Source: Pseudovibrio sp. Alg231-02 | Lineage (GTDB): Bacteria > Pseudomonadota > Alphaproteobacteria > Rhizobiales > Stappiaceae | NCBI RefSeq assembly: GCF_900143565.1 | Contig: NZ_FREX01000003.1 | Span: forward strand, 124,001-188,000 | Direction: 5' to 3' | Length of the DNA: 64,000 bases | Shown here: one piece after another, positions 8,574 to 41,572 of the stretch | Layout: every line of letters starts with the position of its first letter | Position numbering within the stretch: position 1 is the stretch's first letter | Notes under the pieces: model-generated | What the model was told of the DNA's origin: nothing | The model's database searches: none | What the model saw: only the letters and a program-made list of their open reading frames with translations | Made by a program: the position numbers and the translations under genes

Positions 8574-8816
8574 CTAAATTTTTGGTAGGTTGAGACCAGC
8601 CGCCTTCGGGCGGTTTACGATATTCTTCATCTTGTTGAACTCAGTTCCATAAGATTTTTTTATGCCCACGCTATGAGCAAACTCCTTACCCGTCACATGT
8701 TCTAGCTCTTCAGCATACTTAAGTGACTGAAGATGTATCTCCGCAGCTCTGCCTCCTTCAGGAGCCGCATCAATGGCTTGCCGGATTGTGTTAAAGATCT
8801 TGGATTTATCAGCCAT
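8574..8816 (-). CDS. Small HTH-like regulatory protein
   Basis: An 80-residue protein starting MADKSKIF. This start is chosen because TTGAGG stands 8-10 bases upstream; a longer reading from 8906 adds 30 residues without a binding site. The sequence resembles a family of short HTH-like regulators often found near mobile or defence genes. The C-terminal half holds the recognisable part, with TGKEFAHSVGIKKSYGTEF as a candidate helix-turn-helix region. It is divergent from the large helicase-nuclease gene, separated by 378 bases, so it could repress that promoter. The assignment is from memory of similar sequences; the regulatory link is inference. Confidence 0.6.
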   Translation of the reverse strand: MADKSKIFNTIRQAIDAAPEGGRAAEIHLQSLKYAEELEHVTGKEFAHSVGIKKSYGTEFNKMKNIVNRPKAAGLNLPKI

Positions 8817-9194
8817 ATCTAATGCCTCAACATTCCATTGATGAAAACGAATAGGACACTCTGAAAGAATGATAAATTTCATTCTCAGAGCATCATAACG
8901 TTTCATTTTGCAACTAACTGCAAAATACTCATCCGAATTAAAGCCTAGATTTCTCTACGATGAACCGTTTCAATAAAGCAGAGGCTTATCGGCGCCTCAA
9001 ATCACAAAATTTGCGTATTTATACTCTGGTCTGGACGGTAACAATTAAATCGAAGCTGAGTGGAATTCATTTATATTCAGAATTCATATGTCCCTTGTCC
9101 TGAGAGGCTTCTCAGGATGTTGTAGTGCGCGTCTAATATGTTAATGGAAAGTTAAATCTTGATTTAAAGTCATTTCGTTTATTAGGGGGCAAAC
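8817..9194. other. AT-rich divergent intergenic region before the defence gene
   Basis: A 378-base AT-rich segment between the HTH-like gene and the Hhe-like gene. It contains a small hairpin at 9099-9116 (CCTGAGA and TCTCAGG arms around GGCT) without a T tract, and a strong ribosome binding site AGGGGG at 9184-9189 before the ATG at 9195. GAATTCAT occurs twice, at 9063 and 9080, on either side of TTATATTCA. I see no gene here. It must hold the promoters of both flanking genes. Confidence 0.5.
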
Positions 9195-12100
9195 ATGCTG
9201 GAGATCACTCAAGAGGCACGCGCTGAAGAGACAGATTGCGGCGTTTCATTCCAAGTGACAATCTCTAGCGTCGTAAATTATGCGAGTTGGCAGAACTCGG
9301 TTCCCCTCCTCTCCATGGTTGAACTGCATAACTCAGCAGAACACGCTCAGAACAATCTTACGCTAGAGCTAAGCTTCACTCCGTCATTCGCAAAGGCCAA
9401 GAGCTGGAAGATTGATCGCTTACCTGCAGACGAGACACTCAGCCTTTCAAATCTTGAGGTGACTTTAGACCCAGATTACCTGCAAGGACTGGATGAGGCG
9501 GAAAAAGGTGTCGCAGTTTTCCATCTGCGCAATGCTGAAGGGGAACTTGTCGCCGAGCACAGAAAAGAATTGCGGTTATTAGCTCGCGACGAATGGGGCG
9601 GCTTTGCAGGCATGGCAAGCATTGCAGCTGCGTTTGTCATGCCAAACGATCCTGCTATCGCTCAGGTTCAGCGAGATGCCGGGGAAGTTCTCGTAAAATA
9701 TGGATACTCGCCCGCCCTGGACGGATACCAAAGCAAAGACCCGAAAAGAGTTTACATGCTGGGTGCTGCGCTCTGGTCTGCTGTGGCTGGTATGGGCTTA
9801 ATGTATGCAGAGCCGCCCAAAAGTTTTGAAGTTCACGGACAGAAAGTTCGGCGTCCTTCTACTATTCGAGAACAGGGGCTTGCCACTTGCTTTGACAGCA
9901 CACTCTTTTTTGCATCTGCCTTAGAAGCCATTGGCTTAAATCCTGTCGTTCTCATCATCGAGGGGCATAGTTATTGCGGTTTCTGGCTGAGAGAGACAAC
10001 ACTTCCGTCCCTTATTGAACAAGATCCGACTGAGATCAGAAAAGCGCTTGCTGCACGCGAACTTATTGTGTTCGAAACAACAGGTATTACCCGCCGTCCG
10101 GCAGACCAGTTTGATAAAGCGATTGCGATTGCTAAAAGTTACACGAACGAAGAAAACGAAGCGGGTTTTATTGGCGCGATTGATATAGCACGCGCCAGAG
10201 CTTCTCAAATTCGTCCTATGGCGTCACACCAAGCTGCATCTTCAGAAAACCACGCTGAAGCGCCAGAGTTTGAGGCGACTACTCTACCTCTGCCTAAAGC
10301 ACCTAGCTTTGATGCGCTCCCTACGGATGAAGCTGAAGAATCTCCACGTACTCCAAAGGATCGAATCGCACGCTGGCAGAATAAACTGCTTGATCTGTCG
10401 TTGAGAAACCGGCTTTTGAATTTTAAGTCCACCAAACAAACAGTTCCATTTTTGTGCACAGACGTTCCGCTTCTGGAGGATCGCCTCGCTGAGCGGAAGA
10501 AAATTCGGGTTATTTCGCTGCCAGAAGAGAACCCTCATGGGGAGCGCGATGAAGATCTGCATCTCAAAAAGACCGGGCAAGATCTGGATGAAGAGTTTGC
10601 AGCTCAAGCAATTGCAAGAAACGAGCTTCCTTCCACTTTAGAGAAACGAGAGCTGGATAAGCGGCTGACAGAGCTTTTCAGGCGCGCAAAGAACGATCTG
10701 AACGAGGGCGGCTCCAACACCTTGTTCCTTGCAGTCGGCTTCCTGCGTTGGAAGAAGTCAGCTGATGACGAAAAGGCCTACAAAGCTCCGCTCCTGCTTA
10801 TCCCAGTGAAGCTCACACGTAAGAGCGCTGCATCTCGCTTCAATTTGGAGCACCATGAAGACGAAGTGCGTTTTAACGCAACTCTGATGGAGTTTCTCAA
10901 GAAGGATTACAATCTTTCTCTTCCACCATTCGACGCAAAACTGCCAACTGATGAGAGTGGCATTGACGTTCCTTACGTATTTGAGATGGTTCGAAAAGCG
11001 GTACGTGACGTGCCGGGCTTTGAAGTTGTTGATGAGACGGCCCTCTCAACCTTCTCTTTTGCCAAGTTCCTTATGTGGAAGGACCTCGTTGAGCGTACTG
11101 ATGATCTGCGTAAGAACCGGGTCGTAAGGCACTTAATTGATAACCCAGACAAGGCATTTGAACCGGGTGTTTCAACGGCTTTTCCATCTGAGCGCGATAT
11201 CGATGTAAAATACGACCCGAAAGACATCATCACTCCGCTCCCTGCGGACTCATCTCAACTAAGCGCTGTCATGGCTGCGGTGGAAGGTCAGGATTTCATC
11301 CTTGTCGGCCCTCCCGGTACTGGCAAAAGCCAAACCATCACAAACATGATCGCTCAATGCTTGGCTAACAACAAAAGTGTTTTGTTTGTCGCTGAAAAGA
11401 CTGCTGCACTGGACGTTGTTTATCGTCGCTTGCGAGAACATGGGTTAGGCGAGTTCTGCTTAGAGCTGCATTCAAACAAAGCTGAACGAAAGCAGTTTTT
11501 GGAGCAACTTAAGACTTCGTGGGAGCAAGGTTCAAAGCCAGACACTGGCGAATGGGTGCGCATCAACGAGCAGCTCAAAGTTCGCCGAGATCACCTCAAC
11601 GATTATATTACTGCCCTTCACACGCCTTCAGCATGCGGACTTACTGTATTTGATGCTCTGGGGTTGGCTGTAAAACATGCCAATGAATACGTTCCTAAGC
11701 TCAACTGGGACAACAACAGGACCATTGGAAAGGAAACGCTTGCACAGCTGCAGGACACCGTAAGCGAAATCGCTAGCGTGCACCGCGAAGTGCAACCAAT
11801 CCCTGCTCTTAATCTTATTAAGCACCAAGATTGGTCTGTACGCTGGCAAAATGACTTACTGGATGTAATCTCAGAAACTTCGAATGTGACATCCAAATTT
11901 CTGGAGCAGTTAGACGCCTTCAACCAACTTGTTGATTTCAAGACAACGGCACAACTTAGTCTGCAGGATATAGAAGATATTTGCTCATTTTCAGAGCTCG
12001 TTCTGTCAACTCAGGACACTCAGTTGCGTGTCGTGTTCGAAGAGCATTTTGATGAAATCAAGACATCGGCATCCAAATTTGTCCATCAATTAGATACCTT

Positions 12101-15100
12101 CAACCAACTTGTTGATTTCAAAGCAAGTGACACCCTCATCTTGCAGAAAATTGAAGAAATTTGTTCGCTGGCTGAGCTAATTCAATCTACTCAGAGCATG
12201 AAATTGGATAGGGTATCTGAGGAGCGCTTCGACGAACTCAAAACGTCTGTATCCAGCTTTCTCCATCAATTGATTGCCTTCAATCGTCTTGCTAATTTCA
12301 AAGCAAACGGCACCCACAGCTTGCAGGATATTGAGGAAATTTGCTCGCTGGCTGAGCTAATTCAATCAACTCAGAAAACACAGTTAGGTGTGGTGTTTGA
12401 AGAGCGATTTGATGAGATCAAAGCATCTGTATCCAATTTTCTCCATCAGTTGGATTACTTCAATCAGCTTACTGATTTCAAAGCAAGTGACACTCTCGGG
12501 CTGCAGGATATTGAGGAAATTTGCTCGCTGGCTGAGCTAATTCAGTCAACTCAAGAAACGCAGCTAGGTGTTGTATTTGAAGAGCGATTTGATGACATTA
12601 AATCGTCTGCTCAAAAGTTAGAAAAAGACATAATCCAATTTAAGAAAGCAGAAACACAACTAAATGCGTCGTATGATGAAGCAACAATCCTGCGATTACC
12701 AATGGATTCATTGGATCACAATTGGCGTGAAGCTTGTTCAAAAATGTGGCCGTTTTCTGCCTTTGCAAAAGGCAAAATTAGAAAACTGTTACAGACCTAC
12801 ACGCAAAGTGGCACCGCAAGTCCCGAAACCGAAATTTCTCAGCTGCGAGAGATGCAAGATGCGTTGAACTCGATTCAAGAGCAAACTGATCAGCGCTTTT
12901 ATCCTAAATGGGACGGAACACAGACAGAAACTGAAAAGCTGCGCTCTTACTTTGATTTAGCTGAGAAAGTCAAAGCTGTTCTCGCTCACATCAATCATCA
13001 TAGTAATGCTACGATCTTCAAGAACGAGCAATTCCGATCTTGCTTAGAAAATGGAGAAGTTGGTCATCCATTACGATTGCAATCCCAAAAGCTACTCGAA
13101 GCAAAAGATCATTTTCACGTTAAATTTGCCCAACTCTGCGAGTTTACAAATTCACTCAGAAACCAAGGTGATAGGCGCTCCCTACCTAAATGGGAAGCTG
13201 CACAAGCAGATATCGACCAACTCCGCTCTTACTTAGGCTTGGCTTACGAAAGCACAAAGGCCATCCGACATATCAATCACCTTAGCAACGCAACAGTCTT
13301 CAAAAACGAAGAACTCCGCTCCAGCCTGTCTGAGGGAAGAGCTGATGATCCACTACGCTTGCAGGCAGCAAAGTTGATTGGAGCTGCAAAGCTCTTCCGA
13401 GATGGATTGGGCCGTTTTTGCCGCGCAGCAGGTTCTAGCAAAGATCATTTTGAAGGGACTGCAATCTTACACAGATTGCAGGATGATCTCCAAGTCTTAA
13501 CCGACAATTCAAAGCAACTTCAAGTCTGGACCGAATGGCAGAAAGTCAAAACAACTGCTGAAAATCAAAACCTTACGCCATTCATTGAAGCTGCTGAGAA
13601 CCAACTCATCCCTCATGAGGACTTAGAAAAGCGTTTTACTGTCGCCTTCGCAAACTGGTGGCTTCCTGAAGCGATTGATAACACTCCTGTTCTTCGCAGC
13701 TTCAAGCGCTTCAAGCATGAGGAAATGTTACAGCAATTCCGAAAGCTTGATGATCAAGTGCGGGCTACTGCGGCATACAAAGTGCAATCTGCCCTAAACC
13801 ATAAGCTGCCTTCACAGCATGCCGTTCCAAAAAGCTCCGAACTTGGAACGCTTCGCCACCAAATGAACCTGAAGCGGCCAAGCAAGTCTATTCGTGACGT
13901 TATTTCGGCAATGCCTGGAACATTTAGTAAGCTGGCTCCCTGCCTTCTAATGTCTCCTCTGTCAATTTCGCAGTATCTTCCTGCGGGCCAATCACAGTTT
14001 GATGTGGTAATTTTCGATGAGGCTTCCCAGATCACGACTTGGGATGCTGTTGGAGCAATCGCACGTGGTACGCAAACTATCATTGTGGGTGACCCTAAGC
14101 AGCTGCCTCCAACCAATTTCTTTGGCCGCTCAGAACAAGATGATGATGAAGAGCTAGAAGCCTACGAGAAGGATCTGGAAAGCATCCTTGAAGAGGCGAA
14201 AGCCTCTGGTTTGCCTAACTTACAGCTGAATTGGCACTACCGCAGTCGTCACGAGTCTCTCATCGCATTCTCCAACTGGCACTACTACGATAACAGGTTG
14301 ATTACATTCCCATCACCTGTCGTGGCAGACCGTGCTGTGAAACTCGTTCACACGCCAGATGCAATCTATGACCGAGGCAAGAGCAGAACTAATAAGCTAG
14401 AAGCCCAAAACATCGTCAAAGAAGCTGTTAAACGCCTGCGTAAGTGGATTGATCTGCCGGAAGAAGATCGTCCTACACTTGGTGTAATAACCTTCAACCA
14501 ACAGCAACAAAGTTTGATTCAGGACTTGTTTGACGCTGAGTTGCGTAATCATCCTGACTTGGAATGGTTCTTTGCTGACGAACGCATTGAACCTGTCATC
14601 GTTCGCAACCTTGAAAACGTTCAAGGTGATGAACGCGATGTTATGATGTTCTCGATTACGTTTGCCCCCGACATTGCAGGCAAAATGTCCATGTCGTTTG
14701 GTGCGATCAACAAAGATGGCGGTGAACGCAGACTAAACGTTGCAGTAACCCGCGCACGCGAAGAACTACTCATTTTCAGTACAGTTACGGCAGATGCTAT
14801 TGATACATCTCGGACAAAAGCCCTTGGCGTAAAGCATCTTAAGGAGTTTCTGAGCTTTGCTGAAAAAGGCACAATTGCGCTAGCAGCTTCAGACGATGGT
14901 TCTGTGGGAGGCTATGATAGCCCATTCGAAGAAGCTGTCTCCGAAGCACTCCAGATGCGAGGCTGGACAATTGTTCCGCAAGTCGGGGTGTCAGGCTTCA
15001 GAGTCGATTTAGGCATTGTACACCCAGATAAACCGGGAGCGTTTATTGCCGGTGTAGAATGCGATGGAGCAACATACCATAGTTCAGCAACCGCACGGGA

Positions 15101-15962
15101 TCGCGATAAAGTACGCGAGCAGGTACTGCGCAATCTCGGTTGGGAAATCCTTCGTATTTGGTCTCCTGATTGGTGGTACGACTCTCAACATGTAGCAGAC
15201 GAGATTCACCACAAACTGCGAGATCTGTTAGTCGATAGCCGCGCCGCAGATAAATTGAAGGCAGAGCAAGCAGCAGAGGCTGAAAAGCTTGAAGAAGAGC
15301 GCTTGGCTTTTGAAGCTCAACTTGATGAAAGCATTCCGGACACCTCTCTTGAAGAGGTCAAGGAAACGACACAGGTTGATAGGATTGAGCCACTACAGAG
15401 CACTCCATTGCACGGCAATCACTCTGTAACTTCAGCATCAAATGCACCTTCACCAACATCAAAGCCGTATGAGTGGACAGACCTTTCTGGCCTTGCGCCG
15501 GATCCAGACAAATTTCATGACGCTGACTATGCTCCAACACTGTTGGAGATGATCAGAAAAATTGTATCGGATGAAGGACCAATCAAAGATACAGCATTGG
15601 CGCAGCGCATTACCAAAGCACATGGTTGGAGTAGAACTGGTGCTGTGTTGCGGCGTGAAATTGAGAAGCACTTTGCGAACTTTGACCTTCACGAGGAAAC
15701 ATCAGGTACCTTCGTTTGGGAAAAAGATAGCAAAACGCAACTCATCGGCTTCAGGCCAGCAGTGAACAAAGATTACAGGCGTTCTGTAACGGATATTCCA
15801 ATTGCTGAAATCGCTGGTCTCATTGATGAGCAGCCGCACTTGCTTAGCGAAGAGGACCCAGTTAATGCCATCGCCCGAACAATGGGTTATGACCGCGTCG
15901 CTGCAGCCATTAGGGCAAGAGTAGCCGAAGCAATCGAGTACTTTCGAGCACACTCTGGGTAA
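9195..15962 (+). CDS. Hhe-type DUF4011 helicase-nuclease, putative antiphage defence protein
   Basis: A single 2255-residue protein, to my recollection of the type catalogued as the antiviral gene Hhe (DUF4011-helicase-Vsr). In order: residues 140-330 resemble a transglutaminase-like fold with Cys232 and His258 (EGHSYCGFWL); about 390-640 is DUF4011 (RIARWQNKLLDLSLRNRLLNF); Walker A GPPGTGKS at 705-712; a long helical insert to about 1480 with two repeat sets; superfamily 1 motif II FDEAS at about 1607-1611 followed by GDPKQLPP; YRSRHESLI; motif V ENVQGDERD; motif VI NVAVTRAREELL near 1850. A Vsr/DUF559-like nuclease follows, with Asp1938, Glu1955 and Asp1957 (VECDG), then an acidic linker and a C-terminal DUF3320 (about 2110-2165). 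All motifs are intact. It sits between a tRNA and a phage remnant and has no partner gene. Confidence 0.88.
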   Translation: MLEITQEARAEETDCGVSFQVTISSVVNYASWQNSVPLLSMVELHNSAEHAQNNLTLELSFTPSFAKAKSWKIDRLPADETLSLSNLEVTLDPDYLQGLDEAEKGVAVFHLRNAEGELVAEHRKELRLLARDEWGGFAGMASIAAAFVMPNDPAIAQVQRDAGEVLVKYGYSPALDGYQSKDPKRVYMLGAALWSAVAGMGLMYAEPPKSFEVHGQKVRRPSTIREQGLATCFDSTLFFASALEAIGLNPVVLIIEGHSYCGFWLRETTLPSLIEQDPTEIRKALAARELIVFETTGITRRPADQFDKAIAIAKSYTNEENEAGFIGAIDIARARASQIRPMASHQAASSENHAEAPEFEATTLPLPKAPSFDALPTDEAEESPRTPKDRIARWQNKLLDLSLRNRLLNFKSTKQTVPFLCTDVPLLEDRLAERKKIRVISLPEENPHGERDEDLHLKKTGQDLDEEFAAQAIARNELPSTLEKRELDKRLTELFRRAKNDLNEGGSNTLFLAVGFLRWKKSADDEKAYKAPLLLIPVKLTRKSAASRFNLEHHEDEVRFNATLMEFLKKDYNLSLPPFDAKLPTDESGIDVPYVFEMVRKAVRDVPGFEVVDETALSTFSFAKFLMWKDLVERTDDLRKNRVVRHLIDNPDKAFEPGVSTAFPSERDIDVKYDPKDIITPLPADSSQLSAVMAAVEGQDFILVGPPGTGKSQTITNMIAQCLANNKSVLFVAEKTAALDVVYRRLREHGLGEFCLELHSNKAERKQFLEQLKTSWEQGSKPDTGEWVRINEQLKVRRDHLNDYITALHTPSACGLTVFDALGLAVKHANEYVPKLNWDNNRTIGKETLAQLQDTVSEIASVHREVQPIPALNLIKHQDWSVRWQNDLLDVISETSNVTSKFLEQLDAFNQLVDFKTTAQLSLQDIEDICSFSELVLSTQDTQLRVVFEEHFDEIKTSASKFVHQLDTFNQLVDFKASDTLILQKIEEICSLAELIQSTQSMKLDRVSEERFDELKTSVSSFLHQLIAFNRLANFKANGTHSLQDIEEICSLAELIQSTQKTQLGVVFEERFDEIKASVSNFLHQLDYFNQLTDFKASDTLGLQDIEEICSLAELIQSTQETQLGVVFEERFDDIKSSAQKLEKDIIQFKKAETQLNASYDEATILRLPMDSLDHNWREACSKMWPFSAFAKGKIRKLLQTYTQSGTASPETEISQLREMQDALNSIQEQTDQRFYPKWDGTQTETEKLRSYFDLAEKVKAVLAHINHHSNATIFKNEQFRSCLENGEVGHPLRLQSQKLLEAKDHFHVKFAQLCEFTNSLRNQGDRRSLPKWEAAQADIDQLRSYLGLAYESTKAIRHINHLSNATVFKNEELRSSLSEGRADDPLRLQAAKLIGAAKLFRDGLGRFCRAAGSSKDHFEGTAILHRLQDDLQVLTDNSKQLQVWTEWQKVKTTAENQNLTPFIEAAENQLIPHEDLEKRFTVAFANWWLPEAIDNTPVLRSFKRFKHEEMLQQFRKLDDQVRATAAYKVQSALNHKLPSQHAVPKSSELGTLRHQMNLKRPSKSIRDVISAMPGTFSKLAPCLLMSPLSISQYLPAGQSQFDVVIFDEASQITTWDAVGAIARGTQTIIVGDPKQLPPTNFFGRSEQDDDEELEAYEKDLESILEEAKASGLPNLQLNWHYRSRHESLIAFSNWHYYDNRLITFPSPVVADRAVKLVHTPDAIYDRGKSRTNKLEAQNIVKEAVKRLRKWIDLPEEDRPTLGVITFNQQQQSLIQDLFDAELRNHPDLEWFFADERIEPVIVRNLENVQGDERDVMMFSITFAPDIAGKMSMSFGAINKDGGERRLNVAVTRAREELLIFSTVTADAIDTSRTKALGVKHLKEFLSFAEKGTIALAASDDGSVGGYDSPFEEAVSEALQMRGWTIVPQVGVSGFRVDLGIVHPDKPGAFIAGVECDGATYHSSATARDRDKVREQVLRNLGWEILRIWSPDWWYDSQHVADEIHHKLRDLLVDSRAADKLKAEQAAEAEKLEEERLAFEAQLDESIPDTSLEEVKETTQVDRIEPLQSTPLHGNHSVTSASNAPSPTSKPYEWTDLSGLAPDPDKFHDADYAPTLLEMIRKIVSDEGPIKDTALAQRITKAHGWSRTGAVLRREIEKHFANFDLHEETSGTFVWEKDSKTQLIGFRPAVNKDYRRSVTDIPIAEIAGLIDEQPHLLSEEDPVNAIARTMGYDRVAAAIRARVAEAIEYFRAHSG
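11891..12610 (+). repeat. Four 180-bp tandem repeats inside the helicase gene (60-aa units)
   Basis: Four consecutive units of exactly 180 bases begin near 11891, 12071, 12251 and 12431, each with the anchor ATCCA(A/G)(A/C)TTT. In protein they cover residues about 899-1138. Recurrent elements are FNQLVDFKASDT, LQDIEEICSLAELIQSTQ and VVFEERFDEIK. Units 3 and 4 are the most alike in DNA and unit 1 the most diverged. The predicted structure is helical. The period is in frame, so copy number can change without breaking the gene. Confidence 0.93.
12894..13457 (+). repeat. Tandem duplication of a 94-aa segment inside the helicase gene
   Basis: A second repeat set with a 282-base period. The first copy contains PKWDGTQTETEKLRSYFDLA and later INHHSNATIFKNEQFRSCL; the second has PKWEAAQADIDQLRSYLGLA and INHLSNATVFKNEELRSSL. 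Anchors PKW begin at 12903 and 13185. The copies are diverged (roughly half identical by eye), so this duplication is older than the 180-base repeats directly upstream. Confidence 0.88.
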
Positions 15963-38008: not shown

Positions 38009-41000
38009 TCAGATCAAGTTATCGTCCTGATTGACCGAATGCATCTGATCTACAACACCGCCTTCTTCAGTTACGATGGTGTTGAAGTCGTCAGCTTCGA
38101 AGTTCTCCGCAGAGAGGTCTTCTACGCTGATGCCGTTCAAGGTGTAGGTGTGACCACCGTTATCCAGAACCTCGATCACAACACTGTTGTTCTCTTCCGT
38201 GATCTGAACCTGTGATGCATTCAGATTACCGAAATCAATGGTGTCGGTAGCAGGGTCGAAGTTTGTGATGACTTCTTCTGATGCCCAATCCCAATTGATC
38301 TGAACGGTATCGCCTCCGATTGCTCCATTGCCATTGGCCGCAGCTGCAAGAGCTGGTTCAGGAGCATTCTGAGCTTCACGAGGTCCAGTTTCCTGTTCAG
38401 CTTCCTGAGCAGAAGCGGCAACCGCATCATCGTCTCTGTCATTGGAAGCAGCTGCTTCCTGTGCAGTGGTTGATGCTTCAGGAGCCTCTGGAATGTAGGT
38501 AGAGTCTACACTTTCAGCTTCGGACTGAGTTCCCACATCTGCCAGATTGTCAGCATTTGACAGGAAGTCATCAATCTTAGCCTGAGCAGCTGCATCATTT
38601 GCGATGATGCTGTTTGCTGTCAGATCAGCTACGACAATGCCAACCAGCAGAAGTGACCGACCACCGTTACCCGGCAGAGTGAACAACACACCATTGTCGG
38701 TCTGTTCCACTTCGAACTGGCCGCCGCCAATCCAACCGATGTTCACGGTATCCTGTTCCGGATTGAAGTTTGCGACTTCTTCCTGCTTGCCCCACTGCCA
38801 ATCCAGTGTGAACTCACGAGGTGAACCATCGCCCGGATCAACTGGGTCAACCGGATCCACTGGATCTACAGGATCGACCGGGTCAGGATCTGGGGTTGGG
38901 TCTGGGTCCGGAGTTGGATCTGGATCCGGAGTTGGGTCGACAGGTGGCTGTGAACCTTCACCGCTGAGCAGATCAAGGATTTCCTGCAATGTAGATGGAT
39001 CTTTAATGTCGAAGTTATCGGCATTCAGATCCTCAAGGAACACACCTTCCAGCAGGAGGGTTTGTCCACCATTTGAAGGCAGGGAGATCACGAGACCGTC
39101 TTCAGATTCTGTGAAGCTGATCTGGTCTGCACTGATCCAACCAATACTGATCTTATGTTCCGCTGGGTTGAAGTCGGTGATAACGCTGTTTTCACCCCAA
39201 GCCCATGTGAACACGACCACACCATCACCAGGAACCTGACCTGGAGTGCCTGTACCCGGATCAACTGGGTCAACCGGATCGACTGGATCAACTGGATCAA
39301 CTGGGTCCGGATCTGGATCAGTTGGGTCGACTGGGTCAACCGGATCGGTTGGGCCGAAGTCACCCGGTCTGGTCTGGTGGCCATCCGTTGTGTCGCCAGC
39401 TGGCGCTTCCGGAGTCAACAGGCCTTCACGGCTAACGAGGGTCACGTCACCCTGATCAAATCCGAATGGAACTTCAAGGTTATCTTCCATAACCTGATCG
39501 AAGTGGAATTCCAGCTGACCTGGAACCAGATCATCAAGAGAAATGCCTTCGAACAGGAAGCTCTGACCACTTGGCAGAGTAGAGATCAGCAGGCCGTCGT
39601 CGGTTTCTTCAACGCTCAGACGCTCACGTGTACCGTAGTACAGGAAGCTGATCTTCATGGATGATGGGTCAAAGTCAGAGATAACTTCGTGTACGCCGTA
39701 CTCATGAGACCGGATGTAGACTGTGTCGTCTTCGCGAGGGCCCACGCCTTGTTCCCAAGAGACCACGCCACCAAGATCTTGACGGAGGTGTTCATTACCG
39801 ACCACTCCGAAGTCTGAGATGTCGACATCCTGGAAGGTGACGCCCTGCACGATTTGTGCAGAAGAGCTCCACGGGCTGTCGAGAACAATTTCACCAGCAG
39901 GAGACTTGGTCACGATGAGGCCGTGAACAGATGTTCCGCCGAAGTCCAGCTCGTCCCGATCAGGGTCAAAGCCAACGATATCGTCTGCGTTTACGTCAGC
40001 GCGGAACTTGGAACCACCTTCATCGGTCGTGCCGGTGACTGTTGGTGGGTTTGAACCGTCGTTGTCGTAAACAAGCTCGTATCCGCCGCCCTGACTTGGG
40101 TCTGGCACTTCAACGGTCTCACCAATGGCAGAGACAACTTCGTTGAACGCAGACTGGTCTGCGACAGAGAAGTTTGCCAAAGACAGATCGGAGAGTGTCA
40201 CACCCTGGAAGATGGTGGTGGACATGATGTTACCGAACTGATCAGTGATCACGATGCGGACTGTTTGTCCGAGTGCGTCGCCGCTTTCCTCGAAGATTTC
40301 AAACTGTTCGCCAGTCACACCTTCCAGAATATGGATCATGTCAGAGGATGGATCGAAGTCTGCGATGACCTGAGACTCACTGTCCAGACCGAGCATATAC
40401 ATGTCGCCAGTATGGCCACCATGCCCATCATCGCCATCGCCTGGATCAACCGGGTCGACAGGATCTACCGGGTCAACGGGATCAACCGGATCCACAGGGT
40501 CTACCGGATCAACAGGATCTGTTGGTTCTTCAGGCTGAGTGTTTCCGCCAACAAGGTCTCTGATCAATTCAGCTGCTGATGCATCCTGAATGGAGAAGTT
40601 TGCCAGTGTCAGGTCAGCAAGTGCAACCCCGGCCAGGAGCAGCGTCTGCCCGCCATTGGACGGAATAGAGAAGAGCACACCGTCTGGTGTCTCGGTTACT
40701 TCGAGCTGGTCAGCACTGATCCAGTCAACGAAGATCACGCCATCTTCTGTATCGAAGTCGTTGACGACTTCCTGTTCACCATAGGACCATGTGACAACCA
40801 CATCGGCATCTTCTTTTGGAACACCAACGCCTGGCAGAGTGCCGTTCAGGCCTTCTTCGCCAGTCAGACGATCCTGGAAGTAGTCGATTGCTTCATCAAC
40901 AGTTGGGCTTTCAAAGCCGCCAAACTGCTCAACATACTGCAGAATTGAGGTGCCGTATTCATCCTGAGAAACGTTGCCGCCCTGCAGGAGAGCAAGTGTA

Positions 41001-41572
41001 CCGTATGCGCCACGCAAGTGGGCAGCAGCCAAAATACCCGTCAGTGTGAGGGTTACGCTGACTTCCTGACCGTTCTGCTCGTAGGTAAAGTCCTGTCCAA
41101 TAAAGTCGTCCAGTGACTGGCCGCTGTTGGACAATCCGTTTTCGATAATCTGGAGATTGAAGCCAAATGCTTCCTGAATGGCAACTTCCTGTGCTTCAGG
41201 AGTCATAAACTCTTCTAGTGAGTCGACGCCGTTTTTACCGGTCCAGGTACCATCCCAAGTGTTAGTGGATGCGCCGTTGCCGTAAAAGACATCATCATCA
41301 TAGTAGCCCAGATCGATAAGCAGAGCTTCACCGAACTGGTAGCCGACGAACCCAAGTGAGTTGGTGGAGCGATAAGACATCGCACTCCATTGGTCGTCGT
41401 TCAGATCCCCCCAACTGTCATACTCTGGAAAGAAGTCTTGCACCGGACCGCCTGCCCATTCAGTGAGCTGCCAATCCTGAATTCTGCCGTCGTTGTATCT
41501 TTCGCGATCCCAACCGGATTCGAAAGCCCGCAATGCGTCACGGAATTCGTCATATGTGCCACGATAGTCCAT
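38009..41572 (-). CDS. Large cysteine-free modular protein, probable type I secretion substrate
   Basis: A 1187-residue acidic protein with no Cys and no N-terminal signal peptide. Residues 1-110 contain RAFESGWDRERYN and later NSLGFVGYQFGEALLIDLGYY, resembling a lysozyme or transglycosylase-like fold with Glu in FESG as candidate catalytic residue. Then seven related beta modules of roughly 75-95 residues recur (for example VVNDFDTEDGVIFVDWISAD and LLLEGVFLEDLNADNF), separated by Val-Asp-Pro or Asp-Pro-Thr linkers. RTX nonapeptides (GGxGxDxUx) are absent. The C-terminus (about 50 residues, ending NQDDNLI) would carry the secretion signal. The adjacent ABC exporter and adaptor support secretion; the role may be in adhesion or wall hydrolysis. 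It is not a close match to any family I can name. Confidence 0.82.
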   Translation of the reverse strand: MDYRGTYDEFRDALRAFESGWDRERYNDGRIQDWQLTEWAGGPVQDFFPEYDSWGDLNDDQWSAMSYRSTNSLGFVGYQFGEALLIDLGYYDDDVFYGNGASTNTWDGTWTGKNGVDSLEEFMTPEAQEVAIQEAFGFNLQIIENGLSNSGQSLDDFIGQDFTYEQNGQEVSVTLTLTGILAAAHLRGAYGTLALLQGGNVSQDEYGTSILQYVEQFGGFESPTVDEAIDYFQDRLTGEEGLNGTLPGVGVPKEDADVVVTWSYGEQEVVNDFDTEDGVIFVDWISADQLEVTETPDGVLFSIPSNGGQTLLLAGVALADLTLANFSIQDASAAELIRDLVGGNTQPEEPTDPVDPVDPVDPVDPVDPVDPVDPVDPGDGDDGHGGHTGDMYMLGLDSESQVIADFDPSSDMIHILEGVTGEQFEIFEESGDALGQTVRIVITDQFGNIMSTTIFQGVTLSDLSLANFSVADQSAFNEVVSAIGETVEVPDPSQGGGYELVYDNDGSNPPTVTGTTDEGGSKFRADVNADDIVGFDPDRDELDFGGTSVHGLIVTKSPAGEIVLDSPWSSSAQIVQGVTFQDVDISDFGVVGNEHLRQDLGGVVSWEQGVGPREDDTVYIRSHEYGVHEVISDFDPSSMKISFLYYGTRERLSVEETDDGLLISTLPSGQSFLFEGISLDDLVPGQLEFHFDQVMEDNLEVPFGFDQGDVTLVSREGLLTPEAPAGDTTDGHQTRPGDFGPTDPVDPVDPTDPDPDPVDPVDPVDPVDPVDPGTGTPGQVPGDGVVVFTWAWGENSVITDFNPAEHKISIGWISADQISFTESEDGLVISLPSNGGQTLLLEGVFLEDLNADNFDIKDPSTLQEILDLLSGEGSQPPVDPTPDPDPTPDPDPTPDPDPVDPVDPVDPVDPVDPGDGSPREFTLDWQWGKQEEVANFNPEQDTVNIGWIGGGQFEVEQTDNGVLFTLPGNGGRSLLLVGIVVADLTANSIIANDAAAQAKIDDFLSNADNLADVGTQSEAESVDSTYIPEAPEASTTAQEAAASNDRDDDAVAASAQEAEQETGPREAQNAPEPALAAAANGNGAIGGDTVQINWDWASEEVITNFDPATDTIDFGNLNASQVQITEENNSVVIEVLDNGGHTYTLNGISVEDLSAENFEADDFNTIVTEEGGVVDQMHSVNQDDNLI
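38828..38943. repeat. Asp-Pro linker repeat, block 1
   Basis: In-frame short repeats of the form GGATCNACNGG(G/A)TC encode a (Val-Asp-Pro)n and (Asp-Pro-Thr-Pro)n linker between modules 5 and 6 of the large secreted protein. Near-identical 9- and 18-base units make it prone to replication slippage. Confidence 0.85.
39253..39352. repeat. Asp-Pro linker repeat, block 2
   Basis: A second block of 9-base units (encoding Val-Asp-Pro, with one Asp-Pro-Asp stretch) forms the linker between modules 4 and 5 of the large secreted protein. The protein reading is PTDPVDPVDPTDPD and onwards. Confidence 0.85.
40437..40528. repeat. Asp-Pro linker repeat, block 3
   Basis: The longest uninterrupted Val-Asp-Pro run, seven units after Thr-Asp-Pro, lies between modules 1 and 2 of the large secreted protein. 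Units differ at third codon positions but keep the 9-base period. Confidence 0.87.

What the first reader, a model, noticed from the sequence alone, without database searches (positions are those of the whole stretch)
11891..12610. Exact 180-bp tandem repeat array inside the helicase insert
Four in-frame copies at exactly 180-base spacing give 60-residue repeats of helical sequence between helicase motif I and motif II. Units 3 and 4 are far more alike than units 1 and 2, so the array is probably still changing. Variable repeat number could tune spacing or target sensing in a defence protein, in the way other immunity proteins diversify.
Basis: seen in the sequence. Interest (0 to 1): 0.78.

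Follow-up and report, generated by a model that had tools for sequence, protein, structure and literature searches.

The report
Four-repeat helical arm in defence helicase
A marine Pseudovibrio carries a very large, probably anti-phage, helicase-nuclease whose helical insert was lengthened by in-frame tandem duplication: this gene and two relatives have four copies of a 60-residue repeat where other close relatives have one.

Summary
The array is real: four in-frame 60-residue repeats (window 11891-12609) between helicase motifs I and II of a 2255-residue DUF4011/Upf1-like helicase/MTES_1575 nuclease/DUF3320 protein matching PADLOC's PDC-S37. A second tandem duplication (~94 residues) lies downstream in the same insert. 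Three Pseudovibrio gene copies have exactly four units plus that duplication; two others, and two Cohaesibacter relatives, have one unit and no duplication. Insert length is nearly fixed around this lineage (615-623 aa in 17 of 22 proteins of the clade), so 895 aa is a jump of +274 = 3x60 + 94. Same-position units group across the three copies (U4 weakly), no unit has an indel, and dN/dS is about 0.15: the expansion is old and maintained, with no sign of ongoing change, though no strain panel was available. The greater likeness of units 3 and 4 is absent in the two relatives and fits their faster-evolving lineage. The unit is predicted to be a helical hairpin. The insert sits where Upf1-like helicases carry the 'prong' (subdomain 1C), so I read it as an extended arm. 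Repeat state of this insert changed at least four times among 58 relatives. Arm reach as a functional dial is inferred.

The parts
9195..15962 (+). PDC-S37/Hhe-like gene, 2255 aa: N-terminal region, DUF4011, Upf1-like SF1 helicase, MTES_1575 nuclease, DUF3320
11307..11330 (+). helicase motif I GPPGTGKS (aa 705-712)
11895..12074 (+). unit 1 (aa 901-960)
12075..12254 (+). unit 2 (aa 961-1020)
12255..12434 (+). unit 3 (aa 1021-1080)
12435..12614 (+). unit 4 (aa 1081-1140)
12840..13436 (+). second tandem duplication, ~94-residue period (aa ~1216-1414); one copy only in L029
14016..14030 (+). helicase motif II DEASQ (aa 1608-1612); the insert ends here
14925..15218 (+). MTES_1575 nuclease domain (aa 1911-2008), with ECDG at aa 1955
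15507..15653 (+). DUF3320 domain (aa 2105-2153)

Best explanation
The array is a tandemly duplicated helical-hairpin module that lengthens an arm of a Upf1-like helicase-nuclease of the PADLOC family PDC-S37. The arm would rise from RecA1 between motifs I and II, at the position of the Upf1/Sen1 'prong' (subdomain 1C). The ancestor of the gene in Pseudovibrio most likely had one unit and an insert of 621 residues. On the stem of one gene lineage, three units and one ~94-residue segment were added in frame (+274 residues). That architecture has since been kept under purifying selection, and the gene appears to have moved between species. Most likely mechanism: the motor translocates on invading DNA, the arm sets how far ahead of or beside the motor the protein contacts the duplex or a partner, and the longer arm changes that reach or leverage before the C-terminal nuclease cuts. 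Shown: sequence, copy numbers, order of events, selection, helicase kinship. Predicted: hairpin structure. Inferred: arm position and function.
For: Four exact 60-codon units. One unit in L029 and L030, four in window, L002 and L003. Insert 895 vs 621 aa, a difference of 274 = 3x60 + 94; 11 of 58 proteins are at exactly 621. The window's group is nested among relatives with 615-623-aa inserts. Same-position units group across the three copies. dN/dS is 0.14-0.17 in the array against 0.00-0.02 in the two helicase segments. The AlphaFold model of the one-unit protein has mean pLDDT 78, with hairpin helices 218-249 and 259-274 in ten-residue blocks of 79-94. The core aligns best with Upf1-like helicases: IGHMBP2 Z 20.8 (rmsd 7.3, 295 aligned), Upf1, Sen1, Dna2. 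In Sen1 the prong is needed for unwinding (PMC5452015, passages read). PDC-S37 match 1248 bits. Site without the gene in the close relatives G013 and G022.
Against: The four-unit model is poor (mean pLDDT 59.7; units 2-3 mostly 26-35), so the array's three-dimensional shape is unknown. The one-unit model has pTM 0.51, the Upf1-like matches have rmsd near 7-10 and low Foldseek TM-scores (0.13-0.17 for Upf1, IGHMBP2, Sen1 and Dna2), and UvrD/Rep-type helicases reach Z 15.7; they too carry an insertion in this part of RecA1 (recalled). The array and its flank have no sequence match in the PDB, so 'prong' rests on position. That PDC-S37 is a defence family is PADLOC's label, not tested here. The high dN/dS is shared by nearby non-repeated linker (0.10-0.11 at aa 1141-1264), so the rates do not mark the repeats as special. 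dS itself varies from 0.23 to 1.05 along the gene, which hints at mosaic ancestry and weakens simple rate arguments.
Confidence: 0.6

Rival explanations
1. Neutral elongation: the arm tolerates extra hairpins, and the duplications are a frozen accident with no functional effect.
For: The insert evolves many times faster in protein sequence than the helicase core (dN 0.10-0.11 in the array vs 0.003-0.008). The one-unit L029 gene has an intact frame. Only one Pseudovibrio gene lineage has the expansion.
Against: Insert length is otherwise tightly kept (17 of 22 in the clade within 615-623 aa). No indels in 12 units, and dN/dS well under 1. Eleven of 60 positions are invariant across 14 units.
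Confidence: 0.3
2. Actively variable array: repeat number changes by slippage or recombination between strains and diversifies the target range of the defence protein.
For: Copy number differs 1 vs 4 within the genus. The window's units 2-4 are more alike than those of its orthologues.
Against: 3 of 3 expanded genes have exactly four units, with same-position orthology. The asymmetry is in line with the longer L002/L003 branch. Paralogous units are only 67-81% identical in the window's DNA. Indirect and weak: no length change beyond one base in 19 of 19 near-complete copies of a related plasmid gene that has no known array.
Confidence: 0.07
3. Not a defence protein but a housekeeping DNA or RNA-processing helicase-nuclease, in which the arm binds a cellular partner.
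For: Kin to Upf1, Sen1 and Dna2. A large DUF4011 gene is found in every P. aeruginosa isolate of one study, flanking a defence hot spot (PMC10250203, passages read).
Against: Patchy: 5 of 16 Pseudovibrio genomes hold an orthologue. Site without the gene in close relatives. Transfer involving G016 judged against RpoB. Frame broken in 2 of 5 genus copies, unless these are assembly errors.
Confidence: 0.15

Closest known systems
PDC-S37 (PADLOC model)
   Same: Best PADLOC match at 1248 bits. The one-unit relative L029 matches in one continuous stretch, profile 7-1533 of 1550.
   Different: In the window protein the match falls into 3 stretches, the best starting at aa 1332, and in L003 into 2. 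Array and 94-aa duplication are extra.
Hhe (PADLOC helicase-type defence protein)
   Same: Second-best PADLOC match (559 bits).
   Different: Much weaker than PDC-S37; best stretch starts at aa 1440, after the repeats.
Upf1-like SF1B helicases (IGHMBP2, Sen1, Upf1, Dna2)
   Same: Best sequence and fold matches of the helicase core; a helical insertion in RecA1 as in subdomain 1C.
   Different: Sen1's subdomain 1C is about 120 residues; here motifs I and II are 895 residues apart, with tandem repeats. DUF4011, MTES_1575 nuclease and DUF3320 domains are added.
EcoR124I/II HsdS TAEL repeats and Rpn four-residue repeats
   Same: Defence proteins in which in-frame repeat number alters a helix and thereby specificity or pairing (PMC3874165; PMC10327210; passages read).
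   Different: Those are 4-residue helix spacers; these are 60-residue hairpins, four in each of the three genomes that have the array, effect untested.

Membership tests
PDC-S37 | PDC-S37 is the best-scoring PADLOC model, over nearly the full profile | tested here: met
   window 1248 bits, E 0, 3 stretches, best one profile 675-1532 of 1550 (extents of the other two not shown); full-profile coverage seen directly in L029, 7-1533
PDC-S37 | DUF4011 + SF1 helicase + MTES_1575 nuclease + DUF3320 | tested here: met
   Pfam hits over their cut-offs; helicase motif strings and ECDG present; taking this domain list as the definition is my own reading, PADLOC gives no description
PDC-S37 | protects against phage | not testable with these tools
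   needs plaque assays; no paper in the held library has the name
Hhe | Hhe is the best-scoring PADLOC model | tested here: not met
   559 bits vs 1248 for PDC-S37
Upf1-like SF1B helicase | core most similar to Upf1/IGHMBP2/Sen1/Dna2 | tested here: met
   18 of 19 profile matches in the PDB are SMUBP-2 (IGHMBP2), Sen1, Dna2, Upf1, NAM7 (yeast Upf1, recalled) or '5'-3' RNA helicase-like' chains, the weakest being a 'putative deoxyribonuclease'; top Z 20.8 vs 15.7 for the best UvrD chain
Upf1-like SF1B helicase | 1B stalk and barrel before motif I | tested here: inconclusive
   the model starts 40 residues before motif I
Upf1-like SF1B helicase | helical insertion (1C, prong) between motifs I and II | tested here: inconclusive
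   an insertion predicted helical is at that position; homology to 1C is not shown
Upf1-like SF1B helicase | 5'-3' unwinding | not testable with these tools
   biochemistry needed
Actively variable repeat protein | repeat number differs between closely related copies | tested here: inconclusive
   3 of 3 expanded genes have four units, including a pair 95.1% identical in DNA; the difference exists only between older gene lineages; no strain panel was available

The most novel reading that the evidence does not exclude
The insert of PDC-S37/Hhe-like helicase-nucleases is an evolvable arm. Its length is held to within a few residues in most of a clade and is reset in jumps by in-frame duplication of helical modules (60x4 and 94x2 in Pseudovibrio, 80 in a planctomycete, 76 in Pseudomonas/Comamonas plasmid copies, 117-118 and 146-147 in another branch). 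Each jump would change the distance between motor and sensed DNA or partner, and so which phages are restricted.
Probability: 0.2. Interest if true: 0.65.

Novelty: new variant of a known kind. Interest (0 to 1): 0.42.

Why it matters
I found no paper under the name PDC-S37 in the library searched. Natural one-unit genes that are 90-92% identical to the four-unit gene over residues 1 to about 950 give a ready-made test of what the giant helicase insert does, and the recurrent, stepwise growth of this insert suggests that its length may matter.

Tried and rejected
Gene conversion in the window: units 2-4 share more sites in the window than in L002/L003 (for U3/U4, 39 sites same only in the window vs 17 same only in L002; U2/U3 33 vs 14; U2/U4 31 vs 16; but U1/U2 20 vs 21). 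The sites do not form one tract. With L029 as outgroup the L002 branch has more changes in 6 of 7 stretches compared (sum 324 vs 203), most clearly in aa 1-664 (163 vs 78) and U4 (23 vs 10); aa 1141-1264 goes the other way (17 vs 30), and 1359-1452 is nearly even (14 vs 12). In the per-unit counts unit 2 also goes the other way (11 vs 15). Partial conversion is therefore not excluded, only not needed.

A fixed defence hot spot between DUF1513 and the amidohydrolase gene: where both neighbours are found the interval ranges from about 0.3 to 29 kb. Of 45 ORFs of 160 aa or more in five longer intervals I scanned 9 from four of them: 5 were ordinary transport, oxidoreductase or glycosyltransferase genes, 1 had no family, and 3 from G024 were a thymidylate synthase, an aGPT-Pplase/ADDT protein and an M78 peptidase. 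I do not claim a hot spot.

Sequence search of window 11820-13000 against the PDB: no hit at E 10. BLASTP self-comparison listed no repeats even for the window, so it was replaced by a diagonal scan. AlphaFold of the four-unit region gave a poor model and was not fold-searched. No known fold for the arm was singled out in the fold searches, which were dominated by the helicase core; that is no evidence of a new fold.
Full report
What is there. The window gene 9195-15962 (+) encodes 2255 residues with DUF4011, an AAA_11/AAA_12 SF1 helicase, an MTES_1575 nuclease and DUF3320. PADLOC's best model is PDC-S37 (1248 bits), with Hhe second (559 bits). The nearest named records are Pseudovibrio, whose contigs are the same as those of G024 and G025 of the window's genus. 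TRF finds 11891-12609 as period 180, 4.0 copies. Each unit is exactly 60 codons.

Orthologues. Of 87 family genomes searched, 14 matched at E 0.001, including the window's own; several of the other matches are weak. In the genus, 5 of 16 genomes hold an orthologue. G000, G015 (L002) and G016 (L003) have four units plus the 94-residue duplication. G025 (L029) and G024 (L030) have one unit and no duplication, as do the Cohaesibacter proteins L031 and L032. L002 has an in-frame stop near codon 2060, before DUF3320, and L030 is frameshifted just after its unit, so 2 of 5 copies look broken, unless these are assembly errors.

Wider survey and its selection. Matches were found in 64 of 397 genomes of the order (E 1e-30), 27 of 385 of the class (E 1e-60, query L029; no region was fetched from this call), 14 loci in genome contigs, 8 in viral contigs and 462 plasmid records. 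I fetched 40 regions by hand, favouring strong matches with both halves, and 9 plasmid copies out of the 30 listed. Fragments (L038, L040, L042, L084, L085) and the frameshifted L030 were not used in the measurement below.

Insert length. I measured from motif I to motif II in 60 distinct homologues: 48 distinct rows and 12. Rows without usable frame or motifs were dropped (L076, L078, L083, L090, L092, L095). L043 and L044 repeat L031 and L032 and were counted once. In the 58 rows of the tree (L057 and L061 fell out by a stricter motif filter), 39 inserts are 606-637 aa, 11 are exactly 621, and 19 are longer (745-930). In the starred clade of 22 that holds the window, 17 lie within 615-623, the window and two sisters are at 895, and two planctomycete proteins are at 770-774. 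The step is 274 = 3x60 + 94. Internal repeats above the best of 40 shuffles by more than 10 score units occur in 9 of 60: window, L002, L003 (60 and 94), L041 (80), L066, L067, L075 (117-118, 146-147), L093, L094 (76). L035, sister of L041, has a long insert but its repeat score (47 vs 45) does not pass. On the tree this trait changes at least four times; the count cannot tell gain from loss, the tree is of the 'quick' kind and has long branches, so it is approximate. Ten of the 19 long inserts show no significant repeat, so duplication is not the only way this insert becomes long, or old repeats have faded.

Timing. Units in the same position group across the three copies: U1 99, U2 98, U3 90, U4 43. 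The expansion thus most likely predates their split. The gene of G016 is 95.1% identical in DNA to that of G015 (6177 bases), although G016 is the lowest-scoring of 16 genomes by RpoB (89% identity to G000, G015 98%; G015 against G016 was not measured). This points to horizontal transfer. G022, with RpoB 100% identical to G000, has about 1.0 kb, and G013 about 0.3 kb, between the two neighbour genes where the window has 8.2 kb, with no ORF of 160 aa in either: the gene is absent there.

Is it still changing? In L002 both pairs are at 68%. The L002 branch carries more changes (324 vs 203 summed over seven stretches), with exceptions listed under Tried and rejected. No unit has gained or lost a codon in 12 units of three genomes. 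Eleven positions are invariant in 14 units. dN/dS in the array is 0.14-0.17, similar to other parts of the insert (0.09-0.17), except the conserved stretch at aa 1453-1560 (0.02-0.03), and far above the two helicase segments (0.00-0.02). In a related Klebsiella/Raoultella plasmid gene, 19 of 22 records cover at least 80% of the gene; all 19 are covered in full, 17 in one piece and 2 split by an IS21 element, one differing by a single base in length. That gene is not known to carry an array and its copies are nearly identical, so this is weak evidence.

Structure. The 924-residue model of the one-unit protein (14 rows, mean pLDDT 78, pTM 0.51) shows the unit as a 32-residue helix (218-249) and a 16-residue helix (259-274) followed by another long helix (288-311). 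The four-unit model repeats the pattern (helices 218-249, 259-273, 281-308, 318-333, 347-368, 379-396, 399-429, 439-453) but has block pLDDT of mostly 26-35 over units 2-3. The core aligns with IGHMBP2 (Z 20.8), Upf1, Sen1 and Dna2; UvrD-type helicases follow at up to Z 15.7. Foldseek's two top rows were spliceosome chains with rmsd above 30. In Sen1, subdomain 1C ('prong', ~120 residues, including 1461-1554) lies in the same interval of RecA1, judged from the aligned ranges; removing its exposed part abolishes unwinding, while removing only its upper part enhances it (PMC5452015, passages). On that ground I place the insert at the prong position; homology of the inserts is not shown.

Mechanism, with status. 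Shown: old, selected, in-frame growth of a helicase insert in a patchily distributed gene. Predicted: hairpin repeats. Inferred: the units lengthen an arm that contacts the duplex or a partner ahead of the motor and so sets reach or leverage before the nuclease acts. The closest precedents for repeat number acting on defence proteins are TAEL repeats in EcoR124 HsdS (PMC3874165, passages) and Rpn repeats (PMC10327210, passages); these are analogies only. The odds given to the best reading and its rivals overlap, since the arm reading does not depend on the gene being a defence gene.

Novelty. Searches of the held library for DUF4011/DUF3320, Hhe with anti-phage, helicase and PADLOC, tandem repeat with copy number, anti-phage defense and helicase, PDC-S37 and Vsr/DUF4011/Hhe/UG15 listed no paper that appears, from its title and start of abstract or the passages I read, to describe this array or insert; I opened only passages of two of the listed papers, and subscription journals are largely not held. 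I file it as a new variant of a known kind.

Noticed in passing
38009-41572 (-): A 1187-residue ORF with short-period (9/18/27/36-bp) tandem repeat arrays at 38833-38938, 39256-39346 and 40443-40520 and no Pfam (E 0.001) or PADLOC (E 1e-5) match.
   Followed up: partly
L063 (G016:C1:2826143-2831296): G016 carries a second, distant homologue (54-70% identity in the conserved halves, insert 621 aa, so probably one unit) besides its four-unit copy.
   Followed up: partly
L093 2944-9609 and L094 459-7097: Pseudomonas aeruginosa and Comamonas plasmid homologues have 842-residue inserts with a 76-residue internal duplication.
   Followed up: partly
L105 313-3576 (G024): Between DUF1513 and the one-unit gene in G024 lie a thymidylate-synthase-like gene and an aGPT-Pplase3/ADDT gene, a family named for thymine hypermodification, plus an M78 peptidase gene.
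   Followed up: no
L108 5926-13037: In Sinorhizobium the homologue is followed after 2 bp by a 'DNA repair exonuclease' gene, also next to it in Bosea (L098); in Rhizobium beringeri (L096) a YhaN-family gene precedes it. Not seen beside the Thioclava copy.
   Followed up: partly
8574-8906 (-): Small HTH_73 protein gene just upstream, divergent from the helicase gene; a possible regulator.
   Followed up: no
9882-9986: N-terminal region has an ATCFDS...EGHSYCGFW pattern that recalls transglutaminase-like Cys/His enzymes (recalled); no such Pfam family among the 25 of 26 families shown.
   Followed up: no
9195-15344: Synonymous divergence between the window gene and L002/L003 is very uneven along the gene (dS 0.23 at aa 1901-2050 to 1.05 at aa 665-805), which hints at mosaic ancestry by recombination.
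   Followed up: no
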